Source: Ghiorsea sp. (GTDB lineage: Bacteria; Pseudomonadota; Zetaproteobacteria; Mariprofundales; Mariprofundaceae). From it: DNA of 32,010 nt. Shown piece by piece: positions 926 to 22,572 of the stretch. A program made the position numbers and the translations under genes. The number at the start of each line of letters is the position of its first letter. Within the stretch, counting starts at the first letter, position 1. Below the pieces are notes generated by a model. It did no database searches. It saw nothing but the letters and a program-made list of their open reading frames with translations, and was not told the DNA's origin. The stretch lies in the NCBI GenBank assembly GCA_027055255.1, contig JALUNK010000049.1:8951-40960 (forward strand), given 5' to 3'.

Positions 926-2211
926 GTGCATTGCCTGAGGGGTGGGTTGAAACAACCCTTGGAGATGTGGTTGAAAGAGTAACTAAAGGAACAACACCTA
1001 AAACTTTTTCCGCTAATAAGGACGATATTAATTATATTAAATCTGACGCATTGGATTATAATGGAAGGTTAAATGTCGCAAAGTTTCTAAAGGTTACTCA
1101 TCAAGTTCATGAACAGCTTAAAAGGTCTCAACTAAAGGAAAACGATATTCTGCTATCAATGGCAGGAGCTTTCTTAGGTAAAACTGGGTTGGTTTCAAAA
1201 GAAATGCTACCTGCAAACACGAACCAAGCCGCTGCAATCATTAGCGCAAATATAGGTGTCATAAACCATATATATTTATGGTACAAACTAAGAGACAATA
1301 AAACTGTTCGGTACTTCAACTCAATACCTAGCCAGTCGGCTCAGCCTAATATTAATTTTACTGAAATTAAGTCATTGCCAATAAACCTTCCCTCTCTCCC
1401 CGAACAAAAAGCCATTGCGGATATGCTTTCTTCTTTTGATGAGAAAATAGAGCTGCTGCGTGAACAAAACAAAACACTGGAATCTCTTGCCCAAACAATA
1501 TTTAAAGAGTGGTTTGTGAATTTCAATTGTCCTGATGCCACAGGTGAGATGGTTGATTCTGAACTTGGTAAAATCCCCAAAGGCTGGCGGGTTGATTGTG
1601 TATATAATATGGCAGAATACATTAATGGTGCAGCATATAAGAATATGCACTTTTCAGAAGGCTTAAAAGGGCTTCCAGTTATAAAAATTGTTGAATTAAA
1701 AAGTGGTATTTCAGACCAAACAAAATTCACGGAAACAAATTTAGGCGAAAAGTACAAAATTGATAATGATGATATTCTTTTTTCATGGTCTGGTAGTCCA
1801 GAGACATCAATTGATATATTTATTTGGACATTGGGGCGAGCGTATTTGAATCAACATATTTTCAAAGTTATACCTCACTCAGGTATAGGGAAATATTATG
1901 TTTATAATATGTTGAAATACCTTAAACCCATATTTATTTCAATCGCTAAAATGAAACAAACGACAGGGCTTGGTCATGTTACTATTGGTGACCTTAAGAA
2001 GATATTGTTTGTAATACCCGATGAACCCGTTTTGAAGTCATACAGCGATGTCATTAAACATACTTATGAAAAACAATTTCAGTTAAATATTCAAATCCAA
2101 ACTCTATCCAAAACCCGAGACACCCTCTTGCCTAAATTGATGAGTGGGCAAGTGAGGCTGGAGACACTTGAAATAGAACCTTCAAAAGAGGAGCTGCATT
2201 ATGACTCTTGA
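922..2211 (+). CDS. hsdS: Type I restriction enzyme specificity subunit HsdS
   Basis: HsdS recognises the bipartite DNA target and holds the HsdM and HsdR subunits. The 429 residues show the two-repeat layout of the family. Target recognition domain 1 begins with [14 protein letters not shown], followed by a central conserved helix ([20 protein letters not shown], then an [12 protein letters not shown] segment). Target recognition domain 2 begins with [11 protein letters not shown], and a second conserved helix near the end contains [14 protein letters not shown]. Both recognition domains are more AT-rich than the flanking hsdM and hsdR sequence, as is common for exchangeable HsdS domains. 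The ATG lies within the last codons of hsdM. The 3' end overlaps the next ORF by 11 bases. Confidence 0.95.
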
Positions 2212-4318: not shown

Positions 4319-4319
4319 T

Positions 4320-5291
4320 ATGAACTACCAACCACCTTTTACCATCACCACACAAATCATTGATTTAATCAGTGCGGTCAGTGAGCAGGTTGGTTTTGTG
4401 CAGCGGGATTTCTTGGATGCTTCGCCGCAGCTTCGTAAAGCCAACCGCATCAAAACGATTACAGGCACATTGCAGATAGAAGGCAGCACTTTAAGCGAAG
4501 AGCAGGTGTCGGCGGTGCTGGATGGCAAACCTGTGCTTGCATCGGTGCGTGAGCTTGCTGAGGTAAAAGGTGCGATTGCGGCTTATGATAAGTTGAATGC
4601 TCTGAACCCATATAAGCAGGATGATTTGTTAGAAGCTCACGGCTTGATGATGGGTGATGTGTTAAAGCAAGCGGGTTCATTTCGTAGTAAACCTGTGGGC
4701 GTGTATAAAGGTAAAGAGGTGGTGCATGTTGCCCCACCAGCACACAAAATTTCAGGCTTGATAGCAGAGTTATTGGCATGGACAAAACAATCCGATGCTC
4801 ATCCTCTGATTGTGAGCAGTGTGTTTCACTATGAGTTTGAATTTATTCATCCGTTTATTGATGGCAATGGTCGCATGGGCAGGCTTTGGCAAACCTTGAT
4901 GCTTGCCCAGTGGAAACCGTTATTTGTGGATATGCCTCTGGAAAGTGTAATTAAACAACATCAACAGGATTATTATCAGGCATTGGGCAGTGCTGATTCA
5001 GCAGCAGATAGCACGGTGTTCATCGAGTTTATGCTCAAGGCGATTCTCCAAACCTTAGAAAACGCCTCTGTAAACGCCCTTCAAAACGCCCCCGTAAATA
5101 TTGAAGGTATGAAAACACCCGATGCCATCATTGCTCTGGTTCAGGGTGATGCTTCAATCACTCGCCAGCAAATGGCAGAAAAAATTGGCAAAGATATTCG
5201 TACCATTGGTCGAGCCATCAAAAAACTTCAGGATGAAGGAAAACTACAACGCATTGGCTCGGATAAGTCAGGGCATTGGGAGGCGTTGTGA
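4320..5291 (+). CDS. Fic-domain protein (AMP transferase family) with C-terminal winged HTH
   Basis: Fic proteins usually transfer AMP from ATP to a hydroxyl side chain of a target protein. The active-site motif HPFIDGNGRMGR is complete at residues 177-188 (catalytic H177). An N-terminal TLQIEG at 50-55 matches the (S/T)xxxE(G/N) inhibitory helix, so E54 should keep the enzyme off in the ground state. The last 50 residues (TRQQMAEKIGKDIRTIGRAI) form a winged helix-turn-helix. Start: a TTG at 4305 would overlap the previous gene, but ATG 4320, one base after the previous stop, fits the family start better. It overlaps hsdR by four bases. Fic genes are recurrent passengers of type I restriction operons; their target there is not established. 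Confidence 0.88.
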   Translation: MNYQPPFTITTQIIDLISAVSEQVGFVQRDFLDASPQLRKANRIKTITGTLQIEGSTLSEEQVSAVLDGKPVLASVRELAEVKGAIAAYDKLNALNPYKQDDLLEAHGLMMGDVLKQAGSFRSKPVGVYKGKEVVHVAPPAHKISGLIAELLAWTKQSDAHPLIVSSVFHYEFEFIHPFIDGNGRMGRLWQTLMLAQWKPLFVDMPLESVIKQHQQDYYQALGSADSAADSTVFIEFMLKAILQTLENASVNALQNAPVNIEGMKTPDAIIALVQGDASITRQQMAEKIGKDIRTIGRAIKKLQDEGKLQRIGSDKSGHWEAL

Positions 5292-9327: not shown

Positions 9328-9948
9328 GTGCAAGATGAAGAGATTGAAATGCTAAAACATTCAGTTATTGAATCCATATACGCAGAGAACGCGCAAGGTA
9401 AGGAAGACCTGAACCTATACTTAAGTAAAGCAAAGGAGGTGTTGGCGTTTAGCCTAAAACAGCTAGGAGATGTTGATATTCGAGCCTCTGTGGAGCCCGC
9501 TGGCTTTAATCGTCAATTGGGAAGAGAGAGCGCTGAAAAGTGTAAAGAAGGCAGTTCTAGGCTAGCCACAGTCCGCCAGCAACTTGTCGGCATTAAAGAC
9601 AAGTATAAGGTTGGCTTAACAGCCAAGAGTTTAGACTCAGAAATAGAGGACGTGATATCGCAGAAAGTAGGGTTAGAAGAAGAAGTGTCTAACACTCAAG
9701 ATCGCTTACATGTATTGAGAGTTGGCTATGATGCCCTCGTAAAAGAGCTGTCGGAGTTTCACAAGAATATTGAGGTAGAGGCTAAGAGTCAGGAGTTAGT
9801 TAAGAAGGCAAGGATTGACCAGGAGCTGCGAGATTTAGAGGTCAGGGGTAAGCAAGATAAACAGATAAAGTCTGCAAAGACTGCTTTAGTGATTTCAACC
9901 TTGTTAGTGATTGCTTATGAAGCATTTGTTTTATATGGAGCTGCGTAA
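9328..9948 (+). CDS. Coiled-coil protein with C-terminal transmembrane anchor, first gene of the FtsK-type operon
   Basis: A 206-residue protein, mostly predicted helix with long charged heptad-like stretches (for example 105-175), ending in one hydrophobic span at about 183-203 (TALVISTLLVIAYEAFVLYG). This makes a tail-anchored cytoplasmic coiled coil likely. The GTG at 9328 is preceded by a purine run GGGGGGA at proper distance; a TTG at 9304 lies before that site and is less likely. The stop overlaps the next ATG by one base (TAATG). No family is recognised. By position it may tether the ATPase, which has no membrane span of its own, to the inner membrane; this is inference. Confidence 0.7.
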   Translation: MQDEEIEMLKHSVIESIYAENAQGKEDLNLYLSKAKEVLAFSLKQLGDVDIRASVEPAGFNRQLGRESAEKCKEGSSRLATVRQQLVGIKDKYKVGLTAKSLDSEIEDVISQKVGLEEEVSNTQDRLHVLRVGYDALVKELSEFHKNIEVEAKSQELVKKARIDQELRDLEVRGKQDKQIKSAKTALVISTLLVIAYEAFVLYGAA

Positions 9949-12833
9949 TGAGTAAACTTTTAGGGATAGATGAGCTAAGGAAGCTTGATTTAACAGATAT
10001 AGGTGTAAAGATAGATTTAGGGGAGCAGAGAAAACAGTTTGAGAGTGCTATTTCTGAGGCTAAAAAAGAAACTGAAGATATGGAGCGTTTGGTTTCTAAT
10101 GCAACTAGAAAGCTCACTGAGAACACCAAGAAAGTTGCGGATCTTCAAGATGCAAAAGTGAAGCTGTCCCAGCATGCTGTACTGGAAGTTGAAGTAAAAA
10201 CTTCAGCTCAAGACCTGTCTAATCATATAGCAGCAGCTGAAAAGGAAAAGCAAAAAATTGATGCTACAATGGCAATAAAGGTAGCGGATGAAATTAAAAG
10301 TGCTTTTTCATCAGTGGCTGGCTGGAATGATGAAGGCTGGAAGCAGTGGTCCCCACCATCTGACTTAAGCCAGCTGAAATTACCGAATTTTTTGCGAATA
10401 GGCGAAACTAAAAGTGGGATACCTGTAGGTGTCCCCTTTATAAAGGAAGATGGCGGCGCACATGTAGTTGAGATTTCTGGAGCAACTGAGAAGAGAGATA
10501 TGGCTCACGCTCTAATGGAGAACTTGGTGCTTAGGATAGCTTTATCTATGCCAAAAGTTGCGCGCTTCTCTTTGGTGGAGCCTGGGAACCACCGTTGCTT
10601 TAAGGGAAGAAAAGAACTCCCTAGTGTTCGAGTTATTGATAGACTGAGTAAGAGTCTAGAGGAAATTAATAATGACATTGTTAGAATTAACAATGAAGTT
10701 CTAGGTCGGGCAAACTCTCTGGATCATTTAAGTTCTGAGGCATGGAAGACGGAACAATTTGAAAGTATATTCGTTTCAGATATGACTCACCCAGAAATTC
10801 TAGGCGAGCTGGGAATATGTAAGCAGCTTGCAAAGATTGGGTCTAGTGGCTCTTTAGCGGGTCGTTTCCTTTTTGTGTATGCGGATTCGAGTGTGGAATT
10901 CCCCGAAAAAGTCGCTGAGTTGGAATTTGGTTCAGTTTCTCTGATTGACCTTGATGACTTGAGTGAAGATGTGGTGTTGGATTTGTTGCCGAGCCCTGAC
11001 GAGGAAACAAGGTTGTTAAACGTTGTGAAAACTCAGAAGGAAGCCGCAAAGTCAACTAACATTGAAGATTTGGTTGGTTCACAGCTGGATACAGGCTGGA
11101 AGGAATCTAGTATCGATTTTATAGAGACTTCTGTTGGTGAGAACTTGTCAGTCTGGTTTGGAGAGAAGAATGGTAGGAATTGTCCACACGGTGCCTTAGC
11201 TGGCACATCTGGCTCAGGTAAATCCAACTTTTTACACATGTTAATACTAGGGCTCTCTTTGAGGTACTCCCCCGATGAACTTCAGCTTTACTTGGTAGAT
11301 GGCAAGGCGGGCGTAGGGTTCCAGCGGTACGAAGGGCTTCCACATGCGAGAGTCGTATCATTAAGGACGCCACCCTTGTTAGCATTAAGTGTCCTTCAAG
11401 AATTGCTGGATGAAATGAACTCAAGGTATGAAAAGTTTGGTCAAGCTGGCGTTAAAGATCTTTCTAGCTACCGCAGAAATACTTCTTCTCCAATGCCGCG
11501 GTTACTGCTGGTTGCAGATGAGTATCAAGAATTGTTTGAGTATGACGCTCAGAGAGCATCAGAAATAATTAAAACGCTTGCTGAGAAAGGGCGTGCTGCG
11601 GGTGTACACTTGTTCTTATCGTCCCAAAGCTTTACTGCTGGAGGTATGCTAGGCGCGACGGCTATTTTTGGTAATATAGCTATGCGAGCTTCGCTTCAGC
11701 TTGCTGAATCCCCTATGGGCTACTTTGGTGATGAAGGCCGTAAGCTGGTTAAGAGCTTAGATAGACCTGGAATGGTGGTTATCAATGACAACCTTGGTAG
11801 CGACCCAAACAGTAATAAAGGGATGACTGCATCTATTACGGATGAGGAAAGTTCTCGCTTGCTTGGCAAAATAAAAGGTCTAGCTAAAGAAAGTAATGTT
11901 GAGCAAATAGTCTTAAAAGCTTCAGGGAACCCTAAGCTTGAGGGCAGCCAAACAATTCAATACTTCGAAAGTTTACCAAGCTATTTAAGCCCAGAAAATC
12001 TAGAGCATGTGGCTAGTCAAGATGTGAGAAATGGCGGTTTAGGAATTAATGGTTGGCATGTGGGTGATATACCTATTGCAATGGTCCTTGGCCGACGATT
12101 TGAAGTATATGGTGATACGATCTTAACTTTGAAGAGTGCTAGGCAAGAGAACGTGCTATTAGTGGGTAGTGATACTAAGCAAGCTAAAGACCTACTTTGT
12201 GTGGCTATTCTGAGTGCGCTATATATTCATGATAAGGATAATTTAGAGCTGTATATAGCTGATGCAGGCCGAGCCGATATGCCTAACGGGATGAGCCTTG
12301 AACGCCTGAGTAAAGATGTAGTACAAGAGTTAGGTTACCAGACTCAGTTTTTCAGGGGGGAGGAGGGAGTAAGTCGAGCATTGAGCGACTTGGCTGAGCT
12401 TACAAATATTCGTAGTCGCGATAGTTCAGTATCAGGAACCCCTGTTGTTTTGGTTCTAAGTGATTTGGACTTTGTAGAGGAACAGGCTGAGGTAAATCTA
12501 ACTGCCATTCTCAAAGAGGGCCCAAGGTATGGCGTGCATGTTATTTTACAATGCTCTACTACCCAACAGTTTTGGTCATTGTTTAGTGAAGGGAATGCTA
12601 AGAAAAATTTAAGGTTATTTAATCACAAAGTGATGTGGCAAATGAGTGAGGAAGATAGTAGACTCTTGGTGAGTTCTAAAAAAGCATCAATGCTTAAAGA
12701 TCTGTCTGATTGCGAATCAGTTTTGTATTACAACACTCAATCGCATCAATCAACTTCCTTTGCTACATATTTACCAATGAAGTCTTATGAGCAAACTGTA
12801 ATGACGTTAAAAGACAGACCTAATAATGGTTAG
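9948..12833 (+). CDS. FtsK/SpoIIIE (EccC-like) ATPase with three tandem ATPase domains
   Basis: A 961-residue motor protein. Residues about 25-115 are coiled coil. Three FtsK-like domains follow. Domain 1 has a degenerate P-loop around GATEKRDM (178-185). Domain 2 is intact, with Walker A GTSGSGKS at 419-426 and Walker B LLLVADEY with D524 and E525, followed by an AEKGRAAGVHLFLSSQS segment typical of FtsK. Domain 3 has a decayed P-loop LLVGSDTKQ near 737-745 but retains the C-terminal KVMWQMSEEDSRLLV pattern. Three domains with one intact is the plan of EccC/EssC in type VII secretion rather than of FtsK, which has one motor plus a DNA-reading winged domain. No membrane span and no FtsK gamma domain are seen. 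A DNA translocase role cannot be excluded. Confidence 0.85.
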   Translation: MSKLLGIDELRKLDLTDIGVKIDLGEQRKQFESAISEAKKETEDMERLVSNATRKLTENTKKVADLQDAKVKLSQHAVLEVEVKTSAQDLSNHIAAAEKEKQKIDATMAIKVADEIKSAFSSVAGWNDEGWKQWSPPSDLSQLKLPNFLRIGETKSGIPVGVPFIKEDGGAHVVEISGATEKRDMAHALMENLVLRIALSMPKVARFSLVEPGNHRCFKGRKELPSVRVIDRLSKSLEEINNDIVRINNEVLGRANSLDHLSSEAWKTEQFESIFVSDMTHPEILGELGICKQLAKIGSSGSLAGRFLFVYADSSVEFPEKVAELEFGSVSLIDLDDLSEDVVLDLLPSPDEETRLLNVVKTQKEAAKSTNIEDLVGSQLDTGWKESSIDFIETSVGENLSVWFGEKNGRNCPHGALAGTSGSGKSNFLHMLILGLSLRYSPDELQLYLVDGKAGVGFQRYEGLPHARVVSLRTPPLLALSVLQELLDEMNSRYEKFGQAGVKDLSSYRRNTSSPMPRLLLVADEYQELFEYDAQRASEIIKTLAEKGRAAGVHLFLSSQSFTAGGMLGATAIFGNIAMRASLQLAESPMGYFGDEGRKLVKSLDRPGMVVINDNLGSDPNSNKGMTASITDEESSRLLGKIKGLAKESNVEQIVLKASGNPKLEGSQTIQYFESLPSYLSPENLEHVASQDVRNGGLGINGWHVGDIPIAMVLGRRFEVYGDTILTLKSARQENVLLVGSDTKQAKDLLCVAILSALYIHDKDNLELYIADAGRADMPNGMSLERLSKDVVQELGYQTQFFRGEEGVSRALSDLAELTNIRSRDSSVSGTPVVLVLSDLDFVEEQAEVNLTAILKEGPRYGVHVILQCSTTQQFWSLFSEGNAKKNLRLFNHKVMWQMSEEDSRLLVSSKKASMLKDLSDCESVLYYNTQSHQSTSFATYLPMKSYEQTVMTLKDRPNNG

Positions 12834-13098
12834 TCTAGACGAAACCTTAGACGGGTTAATATCCTTTAAAAAGATTATGGATAATGCTGCAGGCGAGTTA
12901 CAAGTATACAAAACAAAGCTGGCTAGCTTTCATGAAGAACTGGGTCCTATCTGTAAGCAGATGGAAGATAATCAGCTGCTTGTCGACTCTGAAGAGCTTC
13001 TGTTGTCTTTAGAACGCTCTATAGTGACGGATATGGATGAGTTAAATGACTTTCTCAAAGAGAAAATAAGTGTTTTGGAAGAGTACTTAGAGCTGTGA
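12826..13098 (+). CDS. Small helical protein of the FtsK-type operon
   Basis: A 90-residue protein overlapping the ATPase gene by eight bases and the next gene by four. It is acidic, free of tryptophan and proline-poor, and reads as two helices (about 5-48 and 53-85) separated by a short polar turn. The size and helical-hairpin look match WXG100 family proteins, but no WXG turn is present, so this is only a possible partner of the next protein. No other family is recognised. The tight overlap means it is made together with the ATPase. Confidence 0.65.
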   Translation: MVSLDETLDGLISFKKIMDNAAGELQVYKTKLASFHEELGPICKQMEDNQLLVDSEELLLSLERSIVTDMDELNDFLKEKISVLEEYLEL

Positions 13099-13376
13099 GC
13101 CATAATTCTAAATACCTAGAAATTATTGATGAGTACGACAAAACGCTCCATAAGTTGTTGCTGGAAACAGAACAGTTTAGTGAAGGGGAAGTTTTAACTG
13201 CTTCATCAGGGCTGCGTGATGTGTACGTGGGAAAAGGTGCGGATGCTTTTTTTTCACGCTTTGAAATGATACGTACCAGATTAGTTGATAATGAAGAAGG
13301 GATTCACCGTTTACGAGGGAAATTGAAAATATTGCAGGAAGTCATCGGAACGAAGTCAATGTCTGGGCAAGAATAA
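13095..13376 (+). CDS. WXG100-like small helical protein
   Basis: A 93-residue protein starting at a GTG that overlaps the previous stop. Two helices flank a central turn reading YVGKGADAFF at 44-53. This matches the WxGxAAxxF turn of WXG100 proteins, with Y in place of W; the helices around it (LTASSGLRDV and SRFEMIRTRL) have the family-like spacing. WXG100 proteins are dimeric substrates or adaptors of EccC-type ATPases, and this gene sits two genes after such an ATPase. No C-terminal YxxxD/E secretion signal is seen. The assignment rests on motif, size and neighbourhood; a profile search would decide it. Confidence 0.65.
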   Translation: MSHNSKYLEIIDEYDKTLHKLLLETEQFSEGEVLTASSGLRDVYVGKGADAFFSRFEMIRTRLVDNEEGIHRLRGKLKILQEVIGTKSMSGQE

Positions 13377-14344
13377 TGAACGTACCACATGAACTAATTA
13401 ATATTTTTGAAGAATTAGATTCTGCTATGAGCCAGTTTCACTATCGCTGTGAAGATGTGAGTGAACAGGTGAGTGGTCAGCAAGGCAGGTTTGAAGAGGC
13501 TCTGCATAAGAATAAAAGGAAAGCCGACGATTCAAGCGATAGAGTGGATAAAATGAAAGGTGAGACTGGAAGCCTTCGAAGTTACACTGAGTCATTTGAA
13601 AATGATTATCATCATACTCAACAATGCGTTAACCAAACCAATAAGAAGGTAGGTGCTTGTAGCCATGAAATCGAGGGAGTTTTAAAAGAGTGGAAAGAAA
13701 AAAAGGCTGATGCACAGGTTAAATTTAATCGGGCGCAAGAGAATTATAGCTTGGCAGTTAAAGAATGGGAATATGCATATCGTTCGTGCGCTGAAGCATG
13801 GGCTGAGCATGACCGTATGTCAAAACAGCTAGTTTTTCTTAGCCGCGATAACCCTCAATGGAATTATGTAAAAGGTGAGCAGATTGCACAACTGTGTTTA
13901 TGTCGAAAATGGGAGCAGAGAAGGGACCTTGCAGACAGGAAGAAAGATCAAAAAAGTACTCTCTTAGAACAAGCCAAAGCTTGGCTTTTAAAATGTCAGC
14001 ATAATGTTCAAGTGGCTACCGATAGTAAGTCTTGGGCAGATAAGGCGTTGTCGGCGGGTAAGGAAGCAAGTGACCTTGCCAGTAAAGAGAAAGAAACTTT
14101 AGATGATGCACATCGTAAGTTGGCTGATATAGATGTCTCCTTACACCATCAAGAAGTCTGTATTGATACAATCAATGAATACATTTTGAAGTCAAGCTCA
14201 GAGGCAGATAATTCTAAGAACATAGAATACCAAATTAAAAAGATTCTAGATAACCATGAAGGTGTGGTTTCCTATGCGCGTCAGAAGTTGGAAGAGCGCA
14301 TCGATTTGCTTGAGCAGTTTGATCATGACAGGAATATTATTTGA
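13376..14344 (+). CDS. Long coiled-coil protein of the FtsK-type operon
   Basis: A 322-residue protein that is nearly all charged helix, with heptad-like runs over about 45-140 and 180-310 and a tryptophan/cysteine-richer centre (about 120-185) that may be a folded or hinge part. There is no signal peptide or membrane span. TAATG links it to the previous gene and the stop overlaps the next ATG by one base. The family is not recognised. Such proteins can act as scaffold, as chaperone or as a long WXG/LXG-like helical substrate; the sequence does not choose between these. Confidence 0.65.
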   Translation: MNVPHELINIFEELDSAMSQFHYRCEDVSEQVSGQQGRFEEALHKNKRKADDSSDRVDKMKGETGSLRSYTESFENDYHHTQQCVNQTNKKVGACSHEIEGVLKEWKEKKADAQVKFNRAQENYSLAVKEWEYAYRSCAEAWAEHDRMSKQLVFLSRDNPQWNYVKGEQIAQLCLCRKWEQRRDLADRKKDQKSTLLEQAKAWLLKCQHNVQVATDSKSWADKALSAGKEASDLASKEKETLDDAHRKLADIDVSLHHQEVCIDTINEYILKSSSEADNSKNIEYQIKKILDNHEGVVSYARQKLEERIDLLEQFDHDRNII

Positions 14345-14766
14345 TGAATAACGAAGCTCTTGAACAGCAGTTAAGTAATCATAGTGAAGAAGTATCGCAT
14401 TATCAAGAAAGTTGGGAAAGCACTAAGGACATCTTCGAAGATGCTGTACAGCAGTGGAGAGATGAGTCTGGGCAAAGCTTTACTCGAAGCCATATCTCTG
14501 AAATAGAAGAGTCTGCTGGAGTCATGAGCTCATTATTGGGTGAACAAAGTGAAAGCCTTCTTCGGCTGCTTACCCTTTTTAAAGAGGTAGCCGAGCAGCA
14601 GGAGCAGCTATCTTCTCATTTGGAAGTATGTGTAAGGCTATCTAGAGAACAGACCAGTATTATAAAGGAGGGGGAGTCCCTCGACTTAGACACAAATCAA
14701 CAAGCTAGCTTAGCGATGAAGCACATAGAGAAAGCAGCTTTAATTATTCAACAAATCAAAGAATAG
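14344..14766 (+). CDS. Small helical protein with WXG-like W-x-D-x-x-G-x-x-F turn
   Basis: A 140-residue acidic helical protein. Its turn WRDESGQSF at 38-46 followed by a long helix resembles the WxD/WxG turn in proteins related to WXG100 that travel with FtsK-type ATPases. ATG 14344 overlaps the preceding TGA by one base; a TTG one codon earlier is unlikely. The remainder (about 55-135) is helical, with many E, Q and S residues. No membrane span or signal peptide is seen. It may pair with the 93-residue protein upstream. Function is unknown. Confidence 0.6.
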   Translation: MNNEALEQQLSNHSEEVSHYQESWESTKDIFEDAVQQWRDESGQSFTRSHISEIEESAGVMSSLLGEQSESLLRLLTLFKEVAEQQEQLSSHLEVCVRLSREQTSIIKEGESLDLDTNQQASLAMKHIEKAALIIQQIKE

Positions 14767-14783
14767 TAACGAGGGTATATAGA

Positions 14784-15683
14784 ATGGGTATTTTTAAAGG
14801 TATTTTTTATGGACTTAAAAGGTTTGACATAACCATAATTATTACAATTTCTATTTTGTTAACAGCCTTGCTTGCACCAGGTGTTTTTGATCAGGGGTTA
14901 CGAGCTGCAATGTCGCCACTGCTTGAAATGAAGCAGAAGAAGCTTCAACAGGAAGAACAAAAGGTTGCTGGACAAGAGAAAACATTATTGCAGAGCTTGA
15001 ATAAGATACCTGCCCGAGAATATAAAAAGAATCTAAGAGGGTATAAAGAGCTGCTGCTGCTTAGACCTGATAATAAAATGTATAAAGCCAAGGTTGAGGC
15101 ATATAAGACCTTGATTAACAAACAAGATGCTGCAAGGATTAAGGCAGCTAAGGCAAAGAAAGAAAAGAAAGAAAAGAAAGAAAAGAAAGAAAAAGCTAGG
15201 GCAATAGCAAAAGCTAAGGCGGCAGCAAAAGCTAAGGCGGCAGCAAAAGCAAGAGAGGCAGCAAAAGCAAGAGAGGCAAAGTTAAAGGAGTTCAAAGAAG
15301 GTTTAATTCGAACAAAGTGGGCTGGAGAAATTGATCAGTATAGAAAAAAAGGACGTTACTTTACGGCGGCAAATATAACCCTCAAGTTTAGGAAAGGTGG
15401 TAAAGTTGATTTTAACATTTATAAGGATAAAATGATTGAAAAGTCAAACGGGAAATTTACTCCTGTACCAAGCGCACTGTTTTATTCAAATACGGGTACT
15501 TTTAATTATACTGTAGACAGTAATCTAACGGTTAGAATAAAAGTTTCTGGTCTAGAGGAAGTGAAGACGGATTATGCTAAATGGAACCCCAATAAAACTT
15601 GGACAGTAAAGTCAAAGGGTAAAAAGCGAATGCTTCTTGAGACTCGGGGGCTGTCTTCTGCATTAGAGAAGAAAAGTTACTGA
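14784..15683 (+). CDS. Single-span membrane protein with TolA-like K/A/E-rich stalk and C-terminal folded domain
   Basis: A 299-residue protein. A hydrophobic span at about 12-34 (ITIIITISILLTALLAPGVF) is followed by a helical stretch that contains a TPR-like segment (about 70-105). A low-complexity stalk of KKE and AAKAKA/AAKARE repeats runs from 124 to about 165, and a C-terminal domain of about 130 residues with alternating polar and aromatic residues (likely beta) ends the protein. The layout of span, charged helical stalk and terminal domain recalls TolA, which crosses the periplasm, but orientation is not settled by the sequence. GAGGG lies eight bases before the ATG. It is the last gene of the operon and the only one with a real spacer (17 bases) upstream. 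Confidence 0.65.
   Translation: MGIFKGIFYGLKRFDITIIITISILLTALLAPGVFDQGLRAAMSPLLEMKQKKLQQEEQKVAGQEKTLLQSLNKIPAREYKKNLRGYKELLLLRPDNKMYKAKVEAYKTLINKQDAARIKAAKAKKEKKEKKEKKEKARAIAKAKAAAKAKAAAKAREAAKAREAKLKEFKEGLIRTKWAGEIDQYRKKGRYFTAANITLKFRKGGKVDFNIYKDKMIEKSNGKFTPVPSALFYSNTGTFNYTVDSNLTVRIKVSGLEEVKTDYAKWNPNKTWTVKSKGKKRMLLETRGLSSALEKKSY
15156..15275 (+). repeat. In-frame tandem repeats coding the K/A/E stalk
   Basis: A 9-base unit (codons for KKE) is repeated four times at 15156-15191, and an 18-base unit is repeated four times at 15204-15275 (two copies coding AAKAKA-type and two coding AAKARE-type segments). Both unit lengths are multiples of three, so copy-number change would alter stalk length without a frameshift. 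Confidence 0.85.
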
Positions 15684-15774
15684 TTTTTAGTTTATGATTG
15701 TAGTGGCTTAATGATTACGTGAAATCGGGGGGGGTAGAACCCCTATAAATGTATTACTTTAAAGGAGAACCAAT

Positions 15775-16391
15775 ATGAAAAAGATAATTTTTATTTAATT
15801 GCCGCGATGACGTTTGTCGCAACGGGCTTTACTTCAACAGTAAATGCAACTCCCGTCACCTCGAAAGAGGCTAAGATTATTGCTAAAAACGAAGCTGGTA
15901 AATGGGGGCATGATCTAGGTGTTATTATGACCCCGACTGAAGAAAACCCTTATGCCAAGACATATTCTTCAAAGAAGGCTCATGAGATGGTAAGAATAGG
16001 CAAGGTAAATCATAGATTTATCCACCCGGCCAGCAAAGTCTGCTTAAGTTGTCACTCGGATTCAAAGCGTCATAAAACACCTAAGGAAACGCTGATAGGT
16101 CTTAGGAATCGTGTCGCGGGATCAACGTATAAAGGTACGAGAGGGGAAGATGTTTCCCCAGAGTTACTTGCAGGCACCTGGCGTTGGACAGAAGCGAATG
16201 TGCGCTCGATGATGTGTGATCCACAAGGCACGATTAAGCGATTGAGCGGAAACCCTGATGCTGAAACGGAAATGTTGTCATATACTTACAAGAGGCACGT
16301 AAAGTATGGTATTCATAAAGATTCATGGGTGTTTGTCTGTGATAAAGAGATTCAGGATCAGGTTCTTAAAGATATTAAATTTTGGGACTAA
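15775..16391 (+). CDS. Exported monohaem c-type cytochrome, signal peptide split by a one-base frameshift
   Basis: The body (from 15807) carries one c-type haem motif, CLSCH, in an otherwise unrecognised protein of about 195 residues. ATG 15775 has a strong AAGGAG site but reads MKKIIFI and stops at 15796. If the five-T run at 15888-100 bases earlier, that is 15788-15792, had six T, the frame would continue as MKKIIFYLIAAMTF into the body, giving a textbook signal peptide with a cleavage site near VNA. So either a base was lost (mutation or sequencing error) or slippage restores the frame. As it stands the ORF from 15807 lacks the positively charged start of a signal peptide, and haem attachment in the periplasm would fail. 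No partner gene for electron transfer is nearby, so it may be an island passenger. Confidence 0.7.
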
Positions 16392-16874: not shown

Positions 16875-16978
16875 AAGCTTAAATTTTCAAAAAACACAGC
16901 ACTCTTTAACCGTTAATGCAGGTCGATTGCGCCTGTATTCTTTTTGTATTCCCTTTTTTTAATCAAGGAGAGCTGTCC

Positions 16979-18190
16979 ATGCCCATAAATGAAAAAAACA
17001 ATGCAGTAAAATTTGATGATAGTAATGATGTTCCCTTTGCAGATGAAGATAATCGTGTGGCGCGTCAACCAAGTAAGATGTTTAGTAAACCAACGCGTTC
17101 ATTTGACGATAATCCATACAACTTTAATCAAGGTCATTTTAAAGCGTTGCGAAGGCGAAAGTCACCGTATGATGTTAAACTTTTTGATGCTGAAGAAGTG
17201 CGCCATAAAATTCAAGAAATGGGTGAGAGCTTTAAACGAATGTCAGAAAAGAAACTGTTGGAGAAAATGGCAGCTTCAGAAGGAGTTGGCAGGTTGAGGA
17301 AACAGCCAAAAAACTATAATGCTATTTTAAATCGCTTAGAAGCAGAGTACCCACACTTTCAAAATGTAGTTGCGAAGTTGCGGCGTAAAATGAAAGTGAA
17401 TAGCTTGCAAAAGTATCCAAGCATTAGCTTTGGCAGAGCTATCCTGCTTACAGGTCCTGCAGGGTCGGGCAAGAGTTCCTTTCTGTTTAAGCTGGCGGAA
17501 GAGCTTAACACTGAGTTTTATAGTTATTCGTGTGCTTGTTCATCAAATGGCTTTGACATTGTTGGCCTATCTCCAAAATGGGGAAATGGAAGCAAGGGTA
17601 AAATCCATGAGCTTCTGGTCGAAAGGAATTGCCCTAATCCCATAATTTTGTTGGATGAAATTGAAAAGGTGGCGGATAGTGACCAGCGATTTGGTTCAAT
17701 TGAAGATGCATTGTACGGTCTCCTAGAAAAAAATAATGCTAAATATTTTCGAGATGAATATGTTGGGATTAAAACTAATGCAAGTATGGTGAACTGGTTT
17801 GCAACAGCTAATGATGCTTCATTATTATCTCCACCTATTAGGGATCGGTTCGATGTCCTTGAGGTGCGATTACCCTCATCCGCAGAGCTTATGAAAATGG
17901 TACCAAGCCTCTATAAAAAGACACTTGTTGAGTTGAACGTACAGGATCATTTCGATTCAAAACTAGATGAGTGTGTAATAAAATTACTGTCAAACTATGA
18001 AGGGGCATCAATTCGGCGGATAAAGGCGGCTATTGAAGAAGGGGTTGCGCATGCGGTAGATAGGTATAAACGCGGTGAGAAACTCAGTATTAAGGTAGAA
18101 GATGTGAGTGGGTTTAACCTCAATGATGATGTAAGCAATAAGCCTGTTGGATTCATTTGGCATACTGGAGGTGAGCTGTTGATACATTAA
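16979..18190 (+). CDS. AAA+ family ATPase
   Basis: A 403-residue protein. The first about 150 residues are basic and helical without a known domain. The AAA+ module has Walker A GPAGSGKS at 159-166, Walker B ILLDEIEK with D226 and E227, sensor 1 in NWFATAND, an arginine finger in PIRDRFDVLEV and a sensor 2-like GASIRRIKAAIEEG. Within AAA+ it looks closest to the Lon/HslU/clamp-loader-type modules by eye, but no protease domain follows. ATG 16979 with AAGGAG eight bases upstream is preferred over the in-frame ATG at 16916. Its stop overlaps the next ATG by one base (TAATG). It probably remodels a complex or nucleic acid for the two phosphoesterases coupled to it; that is inference. Confidence 0.85.
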   Translation: MPINEKNNAVKFDDSNDVPFADEDNRVARQPSKMFSKPTRSFDDNPYNFNQGHFKALRRRKSPYDVKLFDAEEVRHKIQEMGESFKRMSEKKLLEKMAASEGVGRLRKQPKNYNAILNRLEAEYPHFQNVVAKLRRKMKVNSLQKYPSISFGRAILLTGPAGSGKSSFLFKLAEELNTEFYSYSCACSSNGFDIVGLSPKWGNGSKGKIHELLVERNCPNPIILLDEIEKVADSDQRFGSIEDALYGLLEKNNAKYFRDEYVGIKTNASMVNWFATANDASLLSPPIRDRFDVLEVRLPSSAELMKMVPSLYKKTLVELNVQDHFDSKLDECVIKLLSNYEGASIRRIKAAIEEGVAHAVDRYKRGEKLSIKVEDVSGFNLNDDVSNKPVGFIWHTGGELLIH

Positions 18191-18903
18191 TGTTTGTTGG
18201 TGACCCACATGGTCGAGTCACCATTATAAAAAATAATATAAACAAATACCAACCTCAGTCTACAATATTACTCGGTGATATGTGTTACTCCAAAGCAATA
18301 GAACAGTTATATTCTGGTATAAGAAACTTATATTGGATTTTTGGTAATCACGATTCGGATCGGCAGTCATGGTATGATAGTTTGTTTAAGTCATCATGGC
18401 TGAGCCAATGCTTACATGCATCAGTGCAAAGCTTATCTGGCGTAAGGGTTGCAGGTTTGGGTGGTATTTTTCGGCCTAAAATTTGGCATCCAAAATCTGG
18501 TGTGATGTATAATGATCTCCTTGAATGGAAACGAGGTCACAATGGGAAAAGATTTGCCCAGCTTGAGCGTACGAATATGACATCAATTTGGCCTATAGAT
18601 TATGCTTATTTAGCTACACAAAAAGCTGATATTCTAGTTATACACGAAGCACCAAGTTCTCACAAGTTTGGCTTTGAAGAGTTAGATGACTTGGCTGCCT
18701 CGCTCGGCGCTCGGCTAATTGTGCATGGGCATCACCATCAATTCTATACAGGTGTTCTCGATAATGGAGTTGCTGTAGTTGGCTTGGGCTTGGCTCAAAT
18801 AGCACACATGGACATTGAAGCTTTTTGTTTAGCAAAGAATAACAAAGAAATTTTCAACGCATTTAAATTTACAAATAATAAAAATGGAGGCGAGTTATCA
18901 TGA
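18190..18903 (+). CDS. Calcineurin-like metallophosphoesterase 1
   Basis: A 237-residue protein with the five metal-site blocks of the family in order: GDPHG at the very N-terminus (D5, H7), LLGDM, FGNHDSD, VIHEAP and HGHHHQF. These bind two metal ions and hydrolyse phosphoester bonds; substrates in the family run from proteins and cyclic nucleotides to DNA and RNA. The N-terminus starts directly with the first block, so there is no signal peptide and the enzyme is cytoplasmic. It overlaps the AAA+ gene by one base and the second phosphoesterase by four. The two phosphoesterases differ clearly in sequence, so this is not a recent duplication. Confidence 0.87.
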   Translation: MFVGDPHGRVTIIKNNINKYQPQSTILLGDMCYSKAIEQLYSGIRNLYWIFGNHDSDRQSWYDSLFKSSWLSQCLHASVQSLSGVRVAGLGGIFRPKIWHPKSGVMYNDLLEWKRGHNGKRFAQLERTNMTSIWPIDYAYLATQKADILVIHEAPSSHKFGFEELDDLAASLGARLIVHGHHHQFYTGVLDNGVAVVGLGLAQIAHMDIEAFCLAKNNKEIFNAFKFTNNKNGGELS

Positions 18904-19655
18904 AAGTACAAGTGTTATCAGATGTTCATTTAGACCATGCGCAGTATGTGCCTCCTGTGACTGATGCAGATATTGTCGTCCTAGCAGGTGATATTGCAGA
19001 AGGAGACCTAGGTGTTTTATGGGCTAAGCAAGTATTTGATGTTCCTGTTGCTTATGTAGCGGGAAATCATGAATTCTACGACTCAGACCATACAATGAAA
19101 GAGACTATTGAGATGATGAAAGTCGCAGCAGAAGGCTCTAATGTGATAGTGTTAGACAATGAGTCTTTAGTAATTGGAGATGTACGCTTCCTAGGCTCAA
19201 CCATGTGGACAAACCTGCATGATGCGCCAGGTGTGCTCTATAGCGATGGGGCTTATATCAGTGTGGGTGATGATACGTCTGGGATGAATCAGTTTGATAA
19301 GGCCTATGCCCAAGGCTTATTTGAAAGAAACCGAGCTTGGCTGAAGCGTGAAATTTCACAGCCATTCGATGGAAAAACAGTGGTTGTGACGCATCATGCG
19401 CCATCATTGCAAAGTATTCATCCACAGTATGCGGGTAATTACTGGAACGGCTGTTTTGTTACAGATGTGGAAGACCTGATGGGAGAGCACGTCGATTTGT
19501 GGGCGCATGGGCATACTCATAGCAGCTTTGACTACAATATCAAAGGCACACGGGTGGTATGCAACCCTAGAGGCTACCCCGGTGTATTTGGTGGTTTCGA
19601 AAACCCTAAATTCAACAAGCGTTATGCTTTTGATTTGCACAATAAGGAGGTTTAA
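18900..19655 (+). CDS. Calcineurin-like metallophosphoesterase 2
   Basis: A 251-residue cytoplasmic enzyme with SDVHLDH (D8, H10), LAGDIAEGD, AGNHEFYD, VTHHAPS and AHGHTHSSFD, the complete set of metal ligands. It ends with a beta segment and NPRGYPG as in many YkuE/Icc-type predicted phosphohydrolases. The ATGA overlap with the first phosphoesterase and the next start directly after its stop show one translation unit. Having two different phosphoesterases in one operon suggests either two steps on one substrate or a heteromeric enzyme. The substrate is unknown. Confidence 0.88.
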   Translation: MKVQVLSDVHLDHAQYVPPVTDADIVVLAGDIAEGDLGVLWAKQVFDVPVAYVAGNHEFYDSDHTMKETIEMMKVAAEGSNVIVLDNESLVIGDVRFLGSTMWTNLHDAPGVLYSDGAYISVGDDTSGMNQFDKAYAQGLFERNRAWLKREISQPFDGKTVVVTHHAPSLQSIHPQYAGNYWNGCFVTDVEDLMGEHVDLWAHGHTHSSFDYNIKGTRVVCNPRGYPGVFGGFENPKFNKRYAFDLHNKEV

Positions 19656-19847
19656 ATGACAGAAATAATTAAAAGAGAAAAGCATGGCATAGAGTATGTC
19701 CTGTTATCAGACTTGGAACCTGAGCAACTAGTGTCATTTCGCGCATTTCTGTTTGGAGCGCAAATCCCTCTTTTCGAAGGAGAGGGGGCGGTGGCATATT
19801 ATTATGATTATGCTGTATGGCGCAATCAGCTCAGCTCTGGCACCTAA
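19656..19847 (+). CDS. Small acidic protein at the end of the AAA+/phosphoesterase operon
   Basis: A 63-residue protein starting one base after the previous stop, with AAGGAGG at ideal distance inside the end of the upstream gene. It reads as a mixed alpha/beta fold with the aromatic-rich end AVAYYYDYAVW. There is no membrane span, cysteine or known motif. The strong ribosome site and coupling argue that it is real. Function is unknown; it may be a small subunit or a regulator of the enzymes before it. Confidence 0.65.
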   Translation: MTEIIKREKHGIEYVLLSDLEPEQLVSFRAFLFGAQIPLFEGEGAVAYYYDYAVWRNQLSSGT

Positions 19848-19903: not shown

Positions 19904-20446
19904 CTATAGAGGGTTAGCTACTATCGCATTACAATCATCGTCGTACTCATTGTTAGAAATCATTTGAAGTACGCTTTGAATATGCTCGCTAGTAAGGCCT
20001 GTTTCAATATCTGTTAGAAAAAGTTGACCTTTTTGGTATGGGTGGAAGTTGTTTACATCATCTAAGATTATATATCTCACATGTTCTTTGTTATTTTCTT
20101 TCAGCCAACTATTAATCTCATCACCTCGGCTTTTTCCTTCGGGGTATAAGTTTGGGGTTGCTCCGATAATAGGAGGATTCTTCCACCCATTAGATTCAAA
20201 CATATTTATTATCCGAGGAGTGGTGAACCACACTCGCCAACTGGAGCTTATAACAACCCGTGATTTTGATGCATCACAAATGTCCTTCAAACATCTAACT
20301 GCTTTGGGGTCGAGCATTTTCTCAGGGTCTCTACGAAGTGCGAGAAGTTGATCAGACACTGTGAAGTCTCGGCCACCAAAAATCTCGTGCTTATGATAAG
20401 AGTCGCTGTTGAGAACGCCATCAAAATCAAGAAAAATAATGTTCAT
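19904..20446 (-). CDS. HAD-family phosphatase, similar to HAD domains of RNA-repair proteins
   Basis: A 180-residue protein starting with the HAD motif I FLDFDGVLNSD (D7, D9). Motif II is VISSSWR, a lysine is in the EGKSRGDEI region, and the acidic motif YIILDDVNN supplies the metal ligands. The DFDGVLN start and SSSWR motif are typical of the HAD group found in Swiss-army-knife RNA repair proteins, which remove phosphates from nucleic-acid ends; this is recalled, not searched. The ATG has AGGAAGG about eight bases upstream. It converges with the AAA+/phosphoesterase operon, 56 bases apart, so it may be part of the same functional set or an independent gene. Confidence 0.82.
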   Translation of the reverse strand: MNIIFLDFDGVLNSDSYHKHEIFGGRDFTVSDQLLALRRDPEKMLDPKAVRCLKDICDASKSRVVISSSWRVWFTTPRIINMFESNGWKNPPIIGATPNLYPEGKSRGDEINSWLKENNKEHVRYIILDDVNNFHPYQKGQLFLTDIETGLTSEHIQSVLQMISNNEYDDDCNAIVANPL

Positions 20447-21277: not shown

Positions 21278-22345
21278 TTATGCTAAGTAGTGTTTATTCA
21301 TTTGTGCGACCTGCTCTCCAATGTCTTCTTCATAATAGATGAGGAGAGTCTCTAATTTTTTATGGCCTGTTATTTTTGCGAGGTCTTGCATTTTTGGATA
21401 GATGTTGGATAGCATGGTGGTTGCTATGTGTCGAGTATCTTGAAATTGAAAGTTTTCAATCTTGGATCGGATCTTTACTTTTTTCCAAGCCTCTTCAAAA
21501 GCTTTCGCGGTAATGGGGAAAAGTTGTTCTGAATCTGGATGGTTGATCTTATGATATTTCTGCATTTCTGTAAGGATTATTTTGGCTTTTGGGGTTAACG
21601 GAACAAGGCGAAAGGTTCTGGTTTTAGAGATACCCTTGCCAATTTGTAGGTATCCATTTTCTAGATGGGTATTCCCCCAAGTATTTTCGAGAAGTTCTCT
21701 GCGGCGGCCTGCTGTTTCTAGTGCTAAATCAAATAACCAACGTATGTATGGGCTTTGACATTTGTTCAGTTCCTCTCGTAGGGAGGTGAGTTCTTTCTCG
21801 GTTAATGCCCTGCTTCGTTCGCCTGATCCTGCGGGGCTCCTTGGTTTTGCACCGCTTACTGGGTTTGTGATATTTTCATGTCGCCAAGTAGTTCGTATGT
21901 GCTTGAATACATCGTGAAGAGTGGTGAGTTTTCGGATAATGGTTTCAGGTTTATTTCCCTTATCTCTCCACGCATTTGAGATCTCTATAACGTGTCCAGT
22001 TTTTATGCGGTAAATATCCATTTTCCCTAGTGGGGAACGAAGTACTTGGTTGAGGGCGCTTGTCTCGTTGATGATACCTTTTTCCCCGCCTTGTTTGTGA
22101 GGAGTGATTTCTTTTAGGTATCGTTGGATAAAGTATTCTAATGATGTGTTCCCTTTTTTTTGTTCCTCTTTTGCAAACTCATCCCAGGTGTCACTATCGA
22201 TAGCAACTTCAATATCTCGAGCAGCTTTTGTTGCTGCAGCTTTCGTGTTTTTTGTTATGTTTACAGTTTTAAAACCTTTTTTGCGAATTTGGGCGAGCCA
22301 GCGTACGGAGCCATCTTGTAGTACTCTCTTTGTAATGCTTGCCAT
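21278..22345 (-). CDS. int: Tyrosine recombinase (island integrase)
   Basis: A 355-residue site-specific recombinase. An N-terminal arm-binding region (about 1-60) and a SAM-like core-binding domain (about 65-165) precede the catalytic domain. Catalytic residues seen are R214 in TAGRRRELLE, K241 in GISKTRTFR, R305 and H306 in QDTRHIATT, H328 in TGHKKLE and the nucleophile Y337. The first histidine of the usual HxxR box is replaced by Q302. ATG 22345 (MASITKR) has an AGGAGAG site; a start seven codons upstream lacks one. Its 5' end faces the tRNA-Val 152 bases away, marking the island edge. The enzyme looks intact, so the island may still move. Confidence 0.92.
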   Translation of the reverse strand: MASITKRVLQDGSVRWLAQIRKKGFKTVNITKNTKAAATKAARDIEVAIDSDTWDEFAKEEQKKGNTSLEYFIQRYLKEITPHKQGGEKGIINETSALNQVLRSPLGKMDIYRIKTGHVIEISNAWRDKGNKPETIIRKLTTLHDVFKHIRTTWRHENITNPVSGAKPRSPAGSGERSRALTEKELTSLREELNKCQSPYIRWLFDLALETAGRRRELLENTWGNTHLENGYLQIGKGISKTRTFRLVPLTPKAKIILTEMQKYHKINHPDSEQLFPITAKAFEEAWKKVKIRSKIENFQFQDTRHIATTMLSNIYPKMQDLAKITGHKKLETLLIYYEEDIGEQVAQMNKHYLA

Positions 22346-22497
22346 GAGTTCTCTCCTGCATATCATGCCGCAACGTTTTGAGGATATTTCGGACTAGTTT
22401 TTTTGAATCAGAAAAAAACTTCATTGCAACTATAGTGCAACTTTTAAGAAATTGCAATTATAGAAAAGGTTGTAGATGTAGTACTTACAACGTATTT

Positions 22498-22572
22498 AGG
22501 CTCGTAGCTCAGGGGTAGAGCACCACCTTGACATGGTGGGGGTCGGCGGTTCGAAACCGCCCGAGCCTACCA
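22498..22572 (+). tRNA. tRNA-Val (anticodon GAC)
   Basis: A complete cloverleaf can be drawn: acceptor AGGCTCG/CGAGCCT, D stem GCTC/GAGC, anticodon stem CCACC/GGTGG with loop TTGACAT (anticodon GAC at 22530-22532), T stem GGCGG/CCGCC with loop TTCGAAA, discriminator A and encoded CCA. It is 75 bases with CCA. All stems are fully paired, so it is functional. The integrase lies on its 5' side and thrS 34 bases after it, so the island touches its upstream flank. Confidence 0.96.

What the first reader, a model, noticed from the sequence alone, without database searches (positions are those of the whole stretch)
9328..15683. Seven-gene EccC-like ATPase operon in an apparent Gram-negative island
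Seen: seven same-strand genes, the first six overlapping by 1-8 bases, with a three-domain FtsK/SpoIIIE ATPase, three small or medium helical proteins, one long coiled-coil protein and two single-span membrane proteins. Known: EccC/EssC ATPases of type VII secretion work with WXG100 proteins, mainly in Actinobacteria and Firmicutes. Inference: this is a reduced type VII-like or a new defence machine. EccB, EccD, EccE and mycosin-like genes are absent, and no toxin is evident.
Basis: partly seen in the sequence, partly recalled or inferred. Interest (0 to 1): 0.85.

Follow-up and report, generated by a model that had tools for sequence, protein, structure and literature searches.

The report
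Stand-alone type VII-like export operon
[quoted passage not shown] this kind had been noticed before, but I found no earlier description of its stand-alone form.

Summary
Seven same-strand genes lie at 9328-15683, the first six overlapping by 1-8 bases. Six of them are one conserved unit; the seventh (14784-15683) is private to this genome. Relatives of g2-g6 occur in fixed order in 22 loci from Cyanobacteria, Chloroflexota, Bacteroidota, Deinococcota and the host's own phylum (mostly a family I take to be Vibrionaceae). A separate or fused g1-like membrane protein is present wherever the contig is complete. [quoted passage not shown] it has an N-terminal coiled coil and no membrane span. g3 and g4 are divergent WXG100 hairpins by family-level tests. 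g6 is a WxD hairpin with an extended second helix; g5 is a long helical protein. In cyanobacteria an extra g4 copy carries a nuclease-toxin domain and g5 an acetyltransferase domain. The operon sits in a 25.4-kb tRNA-Val island with perfect 45-bp att repeats. I read it as the stand-alone form of the 'mobile WXG/FtsK' systems noted in 2012 and 2024: a new variant of a known kind, probably an inner-membrane exporter. Secretion is inferred, and no toxin is found here.

The parts
9328..9948 (+). g1: 206-aa coiled-coil protein with one C-terminal membrane span (residues 183-201); proposed membrane anchor of the ATPase
   Evidence: a protein of the same layout is present in the other loci, but with no detectable sequence homology
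9948..12833 (+). g2: 961-aa EccC/EssC-like ATPase; N-terminal coiled coil (H24-63, H72-119), three ATPase-fold domains, only the middle one with Walker A (GTSGSGKS, residues 419-426) and Walker B (LLLVADE); no membrane span
12826..13098 (+). g3: 90-aa helical-hairpin protein of a divergent WXG100-type family (this copy has lost the W)
13095..13376 (+). g4: 93-aa WXG100-type hairpin (motif VYVGKGADAFF)
13376..14344 (+). g5: 322-aa long helical/coiled-coil protein; relatives in cyanobacteria carry a C-terminal GNAT domain
14341..14766 (+). g6: 140-aa two-helix protein with the family's invariant WxD (W38, D40) at the predicted turn and a 98-residue second helix
14784..15683 (+). g7: 299-aa single-span protein with a Lys/Ala-rich helical linker (TolA-like layout) and a C-terminal domain of no known family; not conserved, accessory at most
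22494..22538 (+). right attachment repeat (45 bp: 4 bases upstream plus the 5' 41 bases of tRNA-Val); perfect partner 25,373 bp to the left, outside the window (host contig C49 6071-6115)
21278..22366 (-). tyrosine integrase of the island
   Evidence: PF00589, 2.4e-20

Best explanation
The six genes encode a minimal, stand-alone type VII-like export machine. g1 sits in the inner membrane by its C-terminal span and recruits the hexamer-forming ATPase g2 through coiled coils, replacing the N-terminal membrane spans that EccC/EssC have built in. g3 and g4 form WXG100-type hairpin dimers. With the longer helical proteins g5 and g6 they act as substrates and adaptors that g2's degenerate outer domains bind, as EccC binds EsxB, and that its single active middle domain pushes across the inner membrane. 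In some lineages effector domains are attached to the carriers (a nuclease on g4, an acetyltransferase on g5), making the machine a weapon; the copy in this window has no recognisable toxin. Shown by computation: the parts, their homologies, the fixed gene order, the single ATPase domain with Walker motifs, the toxin fusions elsewhere and the mobile island. Inferred: membrane tethering through g1, dimerisation, secretion, direction of transport. Unknown: how anything would cross the outer membrane.
For: Gene order g2-g3-g4-g5-(g6) is fixed in all 22 relatives. One locus (G437, L024) consists of exactly the six genes with nothing else attached. ATPase profile: best solved relatives EccC 4nh0 (1.3e-43), EccC5 and YukB; FtsK only 1.2e-18. 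Foldseek: EccC 5.7e-30, EssC 2e-18, FtsK motor about 1e-12. Only domain 2 has Walker A in all 21 ATPases aligned. 13 of 21 g4 members and 7 of 21 g3 members hit Pfam WXG100 at E up to 1 (best 1.9e-6 and 4.3e-5). The g3 profile's two best solved structures are both HP0062, the ESAT-6-like hairpin of H. pylori. g3 and g4 are homologous to each other (77%, 2e-5). The g6 model turns at W38-D40, and its 14 best structural neighbours are all WXG100 proteins, though none is significant singly. Toxin-type domains: Tox-REase-2 (1e-9) on a g4 copy, GNAT (2.5e-7, 1e-6) on g5. A distant Helicobacter plasmid locus pairs a g3-like hairpin and a co-linear ATPase with a WHH nuclease and a SUKH immunity protein. 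In Marinifilum a coiled coil plus membrane span is fused to the ATPase N-terminus.
Against: I know of no demonstration of secretion for any member. None of the other membrane parts of T7SSa/b is present in the operon, and nothing explains passage through the outer membrane. In the host and in the ten same-phylum genomes searched there is one g4 and essentially one g5 per genome and no toxin-fused copy, so a toxin is not an obligate cargo. g1 is similar between lineages in layout only. The positive-inside rule gives different topologies for separate g1 and the Marinifilum fusion, so the fusion is weak support for tethering. The window's own g3 and g4 do not match WXG100 in Pfam on their own.
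Confidence: 0.55

Rival explanations
1. An intracellular defence device: the coiled-coil ATPase with hairpin and coiled-coil partners senses infection and acts on the infected cell itself, with nothing exported; the T7SS-like parts are re-used as a sensor/motor.
For: The window's island also holds a type I restriction system, a Fic protein and an RNA-repair-type HAD protein. The closest described relatives are cassettes inside CoCoNuT/TerY-P conflict loci (PMC11090510; L045). The ATPase has no membrane span of its own, and no outer-membrane part is known.
Against: PADLOC finds no defence family beyond generic FtsK-domain similarity. Several copies lie among ordinary metabolic genes rather than defence genes. 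WXG100-type proteins and C-terminal toxin fusions are the hallmark of export. g1 is a membrane protein.
Confidence: 0.2
2. A contact-dependent antibacterial weapon in every host, the window's own toxin being either g7's C-terminal domain or encoded elsewhere in the genome (the draft genome is 85% complete).
For: Cyanobacterial copies carry toxin-type domains and, in Prochloron, a downstream gene in the place of an immunity gene; the Helicobacter relative has nuclease plus SUKH. T7SS effector genes often lie away from the machine.
Against: No g4- or g5-carrying toxin elsewhere in the host or in ten nearly complete same-phylum genomes. g7 has an N-terminal membrane anchor and no toxin-family match.
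Confidence: 0.13
3. A cell-envelope maintenance or surface-assembly machine: the helical proteins are built into the envelope rather than used as weapons or signals.
For: Eight of ten same-phylum copies are followed by a GDPD-family lipoprotein and a conserved 766-799-aa membrane protein. No toxin in those genomes. g5 and g6 are long helical, filament-like proteins.
Against: Two same-phylum copies and all other phyla lack these two genes next to the block. Patchy distribution fits conflict or mobile functions better than housekeeping.
Confidence: 0.08
4. A DNA translocase or conjugation coupling ATPase that helps the island move.
For: FtsK/HerA superfamily motor; operon in a mobile island.
Against: No FtsK gamma domain matched, no relaxase or conjugation genes in the island. 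Sequence and fold are closest to EccC/EssC, not FtsK or TcpA. The fixed partners are WXG100-type proteins. Many relatives are not next to integrases.
Confidence: 0.04

Closest known systems
Stand-alone/mobile WXG-FtsK systems (noted by Zhang et al. 2012, PMC3482391 Table 1 footnote 6; attributed to Anantharaman et al. 2012; described within type III-A CoCoNuT loci by Bell et al. 2024, PMC11090510)
   Different: Here no TerY-P, VWA, kinase or McrBC-type neighbours. A fixed block g2-g6 plus a tail-anchored g1, with two further conserved helical families (g5, g6) that I did not find set out in those papers (Anantharaman et al. 2012 itself was not available). ATPases of the TerY-P/Helicobacter type form a separate, supported clade (99/100).
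Helicobacter HP0062/HP0066-type cluster (WXG100 plus FtsK; PMC4978471, PMC3397514) and the plasmid pNHP190012_1 locus
   Same: g3 profile's best solved relative is HP0062; plasmid ATPase co-linear with g2 over 676 columns (1.2e-34); 90-aa hairpin related to g3 (93%, 3.4e-7)
   Different: Toxin-immunity pair embedded; its nuclease carrier shows no detectable g5 homology; different gene order and extra genes
Type VII secretion systems T7SSa (ESX) and T7SSb (Ess); T7SSc-j (PMC11217815)
   Same: EccC/EssC-type ATPase and WXG100-type proteins; toxins fused to helical carriers in some members
   Different: No membrane spans in the ATPase, one domain with Walker motifs only, none of EccB/D/E, MycP, EssA/EssB/EsaA in the operon; host with an outer membrane
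FtsK/SpoIIIE DNA translocases
   Same: motor-domain superfamily
   Different: no gamma domain, three-domain architecture, weaker sequence and fold similarity

Membership tests
Mobile WXG/FtsK (EssC-like) systems of Anantharaman/Zhang 2012 and Bell 2024 | ATPase with three FtsK/HerA domains, only the middle one active | tested here: met
   Walker A only at residues 419-426; domains 1 and 3 lack it in all 21 relatives (two Chitinophagaceae rows have a chance AVLNAGKS match that is not at the domain-3 P-loop); fold model
Mobile WXG/FtsK (EssC-like) systems of Anantharaman/Zhang 2012 and Bell 2024 | N-terminal coiled coil in place of FHA domains and membrane spans | tested here: met
   helices 24-63 and 72-119 (low confidence in parts); no span by hydropathy
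Mobile WXG/FtsK (EssC-like) systems of Anantharaman/Zhang 2012 and Bell 2024 | adjacent WXG100-type protein(s) | tested here: met
   family-level Pfam matches for g3 and g4; window g3 and g4 are members of those families
Mobile WXG/FtsK (EssC-like) systems of Anantharaman/Zhang 2012 and Bell 2024 | mobile, horizontally spread | tested here: met
   45-bp att repeats and integrase; absent from 199 related genomes; scattered over five phyla
Mobile WXG/FtsK (EssC-like) systems of Anantharaman/Zhang 2012 and Bell 2024 | protein secretion | not testable with these tools
   needs experiment; not shown for any member to my knowledge
Canonical type VII secretion system (T7SSa/T7SSb) | EccC/EssC-family ATPase | tested here: met
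   homologous by profile and fold but far below NCBIfam equivalog cut-offs (116 vs 509 bits)
Canonical type VII secretion system (T7SSa/T7SSb) | membrane-spanning N-terminus of the ATPase | tested here: not met
   no span in g2
Canonical type VII secretion system (T7SSa/T7SSb) | membrane partners EccB/EccD/EccE/MycP or EssA/EssB/EsaA encoded with the ATPase | tested here: not met
   no such family among the operon's proteins; the whole-genome EccB search was negative but its control did not ring, so absence elsewhere in the genome is not shown
WXG100 (PF06013), window g3 and g4 individually | match above the Pfam cut-off | tested here: not met
   no match for the window's own proteins; relatives match with E down to 1.9e-6
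FtsK/SpoIIIE DNA translocase | FtsK gamma DNA-reading domain | tested here: not met
   no such match in g2
Known anti-phage defence system (PADLOC) | system-specific models | tested here: not met
   only generic FtsK-domain similarity to SspH and mad8

The most novel reading that the evidence does not exclude
A stand-alone, horizontally spread counterpart of the type VII secretion system in bacteria with an outer membrane, with its own fixed set of six components (tail-anchored g1, single-motor ATPase, two WXG100-type hairpins, and two helical families for which I found no description), used across at least five phyla and only sometimes loaded with toxins. It would be a distinct secretion type rather than a reduced T7SS.
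Probability: 0.4. Interest if true: 0.82.

Novelty: new variant of a known kind. Interest (0 to 1): 0.62.

Why it matters
Type VII secretion is usually described as a Gram-positive and mycobacterial pathway, and the surveys read here place WXG100 proteins in Actinobacteria, Firmicutes and a few Chloroflexi (PMC3935865, PMC11217815). This cassette gives a compact, defined six-gene set in bacteria with an outer membrane, some with cultured representatives (Marinifilum flexuosum DSM 21950, a Deinococcus plasmid). The question whether WXG100-type export exists in Gram-negative bacteria could therefore be tested directly. It also shows how an EccC-type motor may work with one active domain and, possibly, a separate membrane anchor.

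Tried and rejected
Viral contigs: only generic FtsK-domain hits; phage records likewise, so it is not a phage gene set. PADLOC, PHROGs and NCBIfam: nothing specific for the small proteins. Helicobacter nuclease carrier against g5: no detectable homology. g1 of the window against both g1 groups: nothing beyond layout. g7 C-terminal domain against solved structures: nothing. g5 against solved structures: generic coiled coils only. g3, g5 and g6 profile searches bring up many unrelated coiled coils, so I relied on family counts, shuffles and synteny rather than single E-values. Promoter and terminator scans gave no clear excess over shuffles. In the tree the window ATPase sits on a long branch of unsure place, so I claim no donor. 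Anantharaman et al. 2012 was not in the library.

Full report
1. What is there. The window is part of contig C49 of a 2.0-Mb draft genome, 85% complete. g1 is a coiled-coil protein with one C-terminal span. g2 is a 961-aa FtsK/SpoIIIE-domain protein. g3 (90 aa), g4 (93 aa), g5 (322 aa) and g6 (140 aa) are helical and have no span. g7 (299 aa) has one N-terminal span, a Lys/Ala-rich linker and a C-terminal domain of no known family.

2. The setting. The genome encodes Omp85/BamA (9.9e-66), so the host has an outer membrane. A tyrosine integrase lies beside tRNA-Val. The first 41 bases of that tRNA and 4 bases before it are repeated perfectly (45 bp) 25,373 bp to the left, outside the window (C49 6071-6115 and 31444-31488; chance about 1e-17). 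This defines a 25.4-kb island. It holds a type I restriction system (hsdM, hsdS, hsdR by inspection of the translations), a GHKL-like ATPase with a weak HSDR_N domain, a Fic protein, the operon, an AAA ATPase, two phosphoesterases, an RNA-repair-type HAD protein and an excisionase-like regulator. No match to g2 at E 1e-30 occurs in 199 other genomes of the host's genus, family and wider kin, as expected for a mobile element.

3. One conserved unit of six. Full-length g2 relatives (about 30% identity) were found in Prochloron, Phormidium, several Anaerolineae, two Marinifilum species and two Chitinophagaceae, a Deinococcus plasmid, and in the host's own phylum: five phyla in all. In the host's phylum they occur in 2 of 299 genomes drawn across it (the host included), 4 of 296 of one order, 9 of 151 of one family whose two-replicon 4.5-5.7-Mb genomes I take to be Vibrionaceae, and 1 of 12 of another family. 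Profiles made without the window show the order g2-g3-g4-g5 in all 22 relatives. g6 follows in 19 of them; it is missing in Prochloron, beyond the contig end in L007, and in L026 reads as the end of the g5 frame. A separate g1 lies before g2, or after g6 in the Anaerolineae whose contigs reach that far. Locus L024 is the six genes and nothing else between unrelated neighbours. The window's own g3, g4, g5 and g6 are members of these families: 31.5, 21.4, 68.7 and 25.4 bits, with no shuffle of 2000 and no other window ORF near those scores. g7 is not part of the unit.

4. The ATPase. The best profile match among solved structures is EccC of Thermomonospora (1.3e-43), then mycobacterial EccC5 and Bacillus YukB; FtsK follows at 1e-18. 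The AlphaFold2 model (pLDDT 76.6) has two long N-terminal helices and three ATPase-fold domains. Its closest fold is again EccC (5.7e-30), then EssC. Walker A and B are intact only in the middle domain in all 21 relatives aligned; domains 1 and 3 have kept the fold but lost the P-loop. There is no membrane span. In Marinifilum the protein is about 120 residues longer and begins with a coiled coil and a span, and no separate g1 is found there. I read this as a g1-ATPase fusion, with the caveat that charge distribution suggests a different topology from the separate g1.

5. The small proteins. In relatives g4 carries W....Y.GxxA..F and g3 WxDxMR..YD..W. 13 of 21 g4 and 7 of 21 g3 members match Pfam WXG100 (best 1.9e-6 and 4.3e-5). 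The two families are homologous to each other. The g3 profile's two best solved structures are HP0062 of Helicobacter pylori (1.5e-4, 4.4e-4), which has been compared with ESAT-6 and lies by an FtsK gene (PMC3397514). g6 has an invariant WxD exactly at the predicted turn between two helices. Its nearest folds are EsxB and CFP10-ESAT6, none significant alone. g5 is a long helical protein with a conserved start MxxxP..L and conserved W and Ala positions.

6. Cargo. In Prochloron an extra g4 copy ends in Tox-REase-2 (1e-9, above cut-off) and is followed by a 125-aa gene in the place of an immunity gene. In Phormidium the corresponding copy has a weak restriction-endonuclease-like match (0.019). 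In both, g5 ends in a GNAT acetyltransferase domain. The distant Helicobacter plasmid locus has a WHH nuclease with a SUKH immunity protein between a g3-like hairpin and the ATPase. By contrast the host and the ten same-phylum genomes contain one g4 each and no toxin-linked copy. Eight of the ten same-phylum loci have instead a GDPD lipoprotein and a large membrane protein downstream. So toxins are optional cargo, and the window's copy is unarmed as far as can be seen.

7. Relation to what is known. Zhang et al. [quoted passage not shown] Bell et al. 2024 (PMC11090510) describe the same kind of ATPase, with N-terminal coiled coil and no membrane spans, and two WXG100 proteins in CoCoNuT loci, and cite Anantharaman et al. 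2012 for stand-alone versions. The H. pylori literature calls HP0062/HP0066-type genes a minimal type VII set (PMC4978471). The present operon meets every testable feature of that class (membership table), so the class is not new. What I did not find described is the stand-alone block with g1, g5 and g6, its fixed order over five phyla, its presence in Vibrio-like bacteria, the effector fusions in cyanobacteria and the precise island. Its ATPases are separate from the TerY-P/Helicobacter/Rhodococcus type, which forms its own clade (99/100). It fails defining features of canonical T7SSa/b (spans in the ATPase; EccB/D/E or EssA/EssB/EsaA), so I do not file it there, while holding that it probably works like one.

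8. Judgement. That these are unrelated genes side by side is excluded; the type VII-like reading is the best supported (0.55). The step from homology to secretion, and above all the route through the outer membrane, is inference.

Noticed in passing
15774-16391 (+): 194-aa protein with one CxxCH haem-c-type motif; the ATG after a good ribosome-binding site reads MKKIIFI-stop, while the downstream frame continues a signal-peptide-like stretch: a frameshift within a T-rich run, either an assembly error or a broken gene.
   Followed up: partly
2201-5291 (+): GHKL-like ATPase with a C-terminal HSDR_N-type nuclease domain, and a Fic protein (4305-5291), between hsdS and hsdR of the type I restriction operon; possibly a defence add-on.
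   Followed up: partly
16916-19847 (+): AAA ATPase followed by two adjacent calcineurin-like phosphoesterases and a small protein, overlapping or abutting like an operon.
   Followed up: no
19904-20446 (-): HAD_SAK_2 domain protein (RNA-repair 'Swiss Army Knife' family, 4.4e-31) inside the island.
   Followed up: no
L004 7897-10566; L005 5744-6634: Anaerolineae copies of the block are followed by a second, HerA-like ATPase (889 aa in L004, DUF87 9e-8).
   Followed up: no
L025 16385-20000; L036 15564-19042 and L037 15562-19100: An ECF-like sigma factor and a large Ser/Thr kinase lie near the block in three Vibrio-like genomes (by inspection of translations); kinases also accompany the TerY-P type and T7SSc/d.
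   Followed up: no
L025 10524-14387 and equivalents in L017, L026, L035-L039: GDPD-family lipoprotein plus a 766-799-aa membrane protein of no family, conserved directly downstream in eight same-phylum loci; candidate envelope components.
   Followed up: partly
L081 (Phormidium genome, G692 C157 5567-5983): A second, weak g5-like match (1.2e-7) inside a 551-aa open frame away from the block; could be another carrier protein.
   Followed up: no
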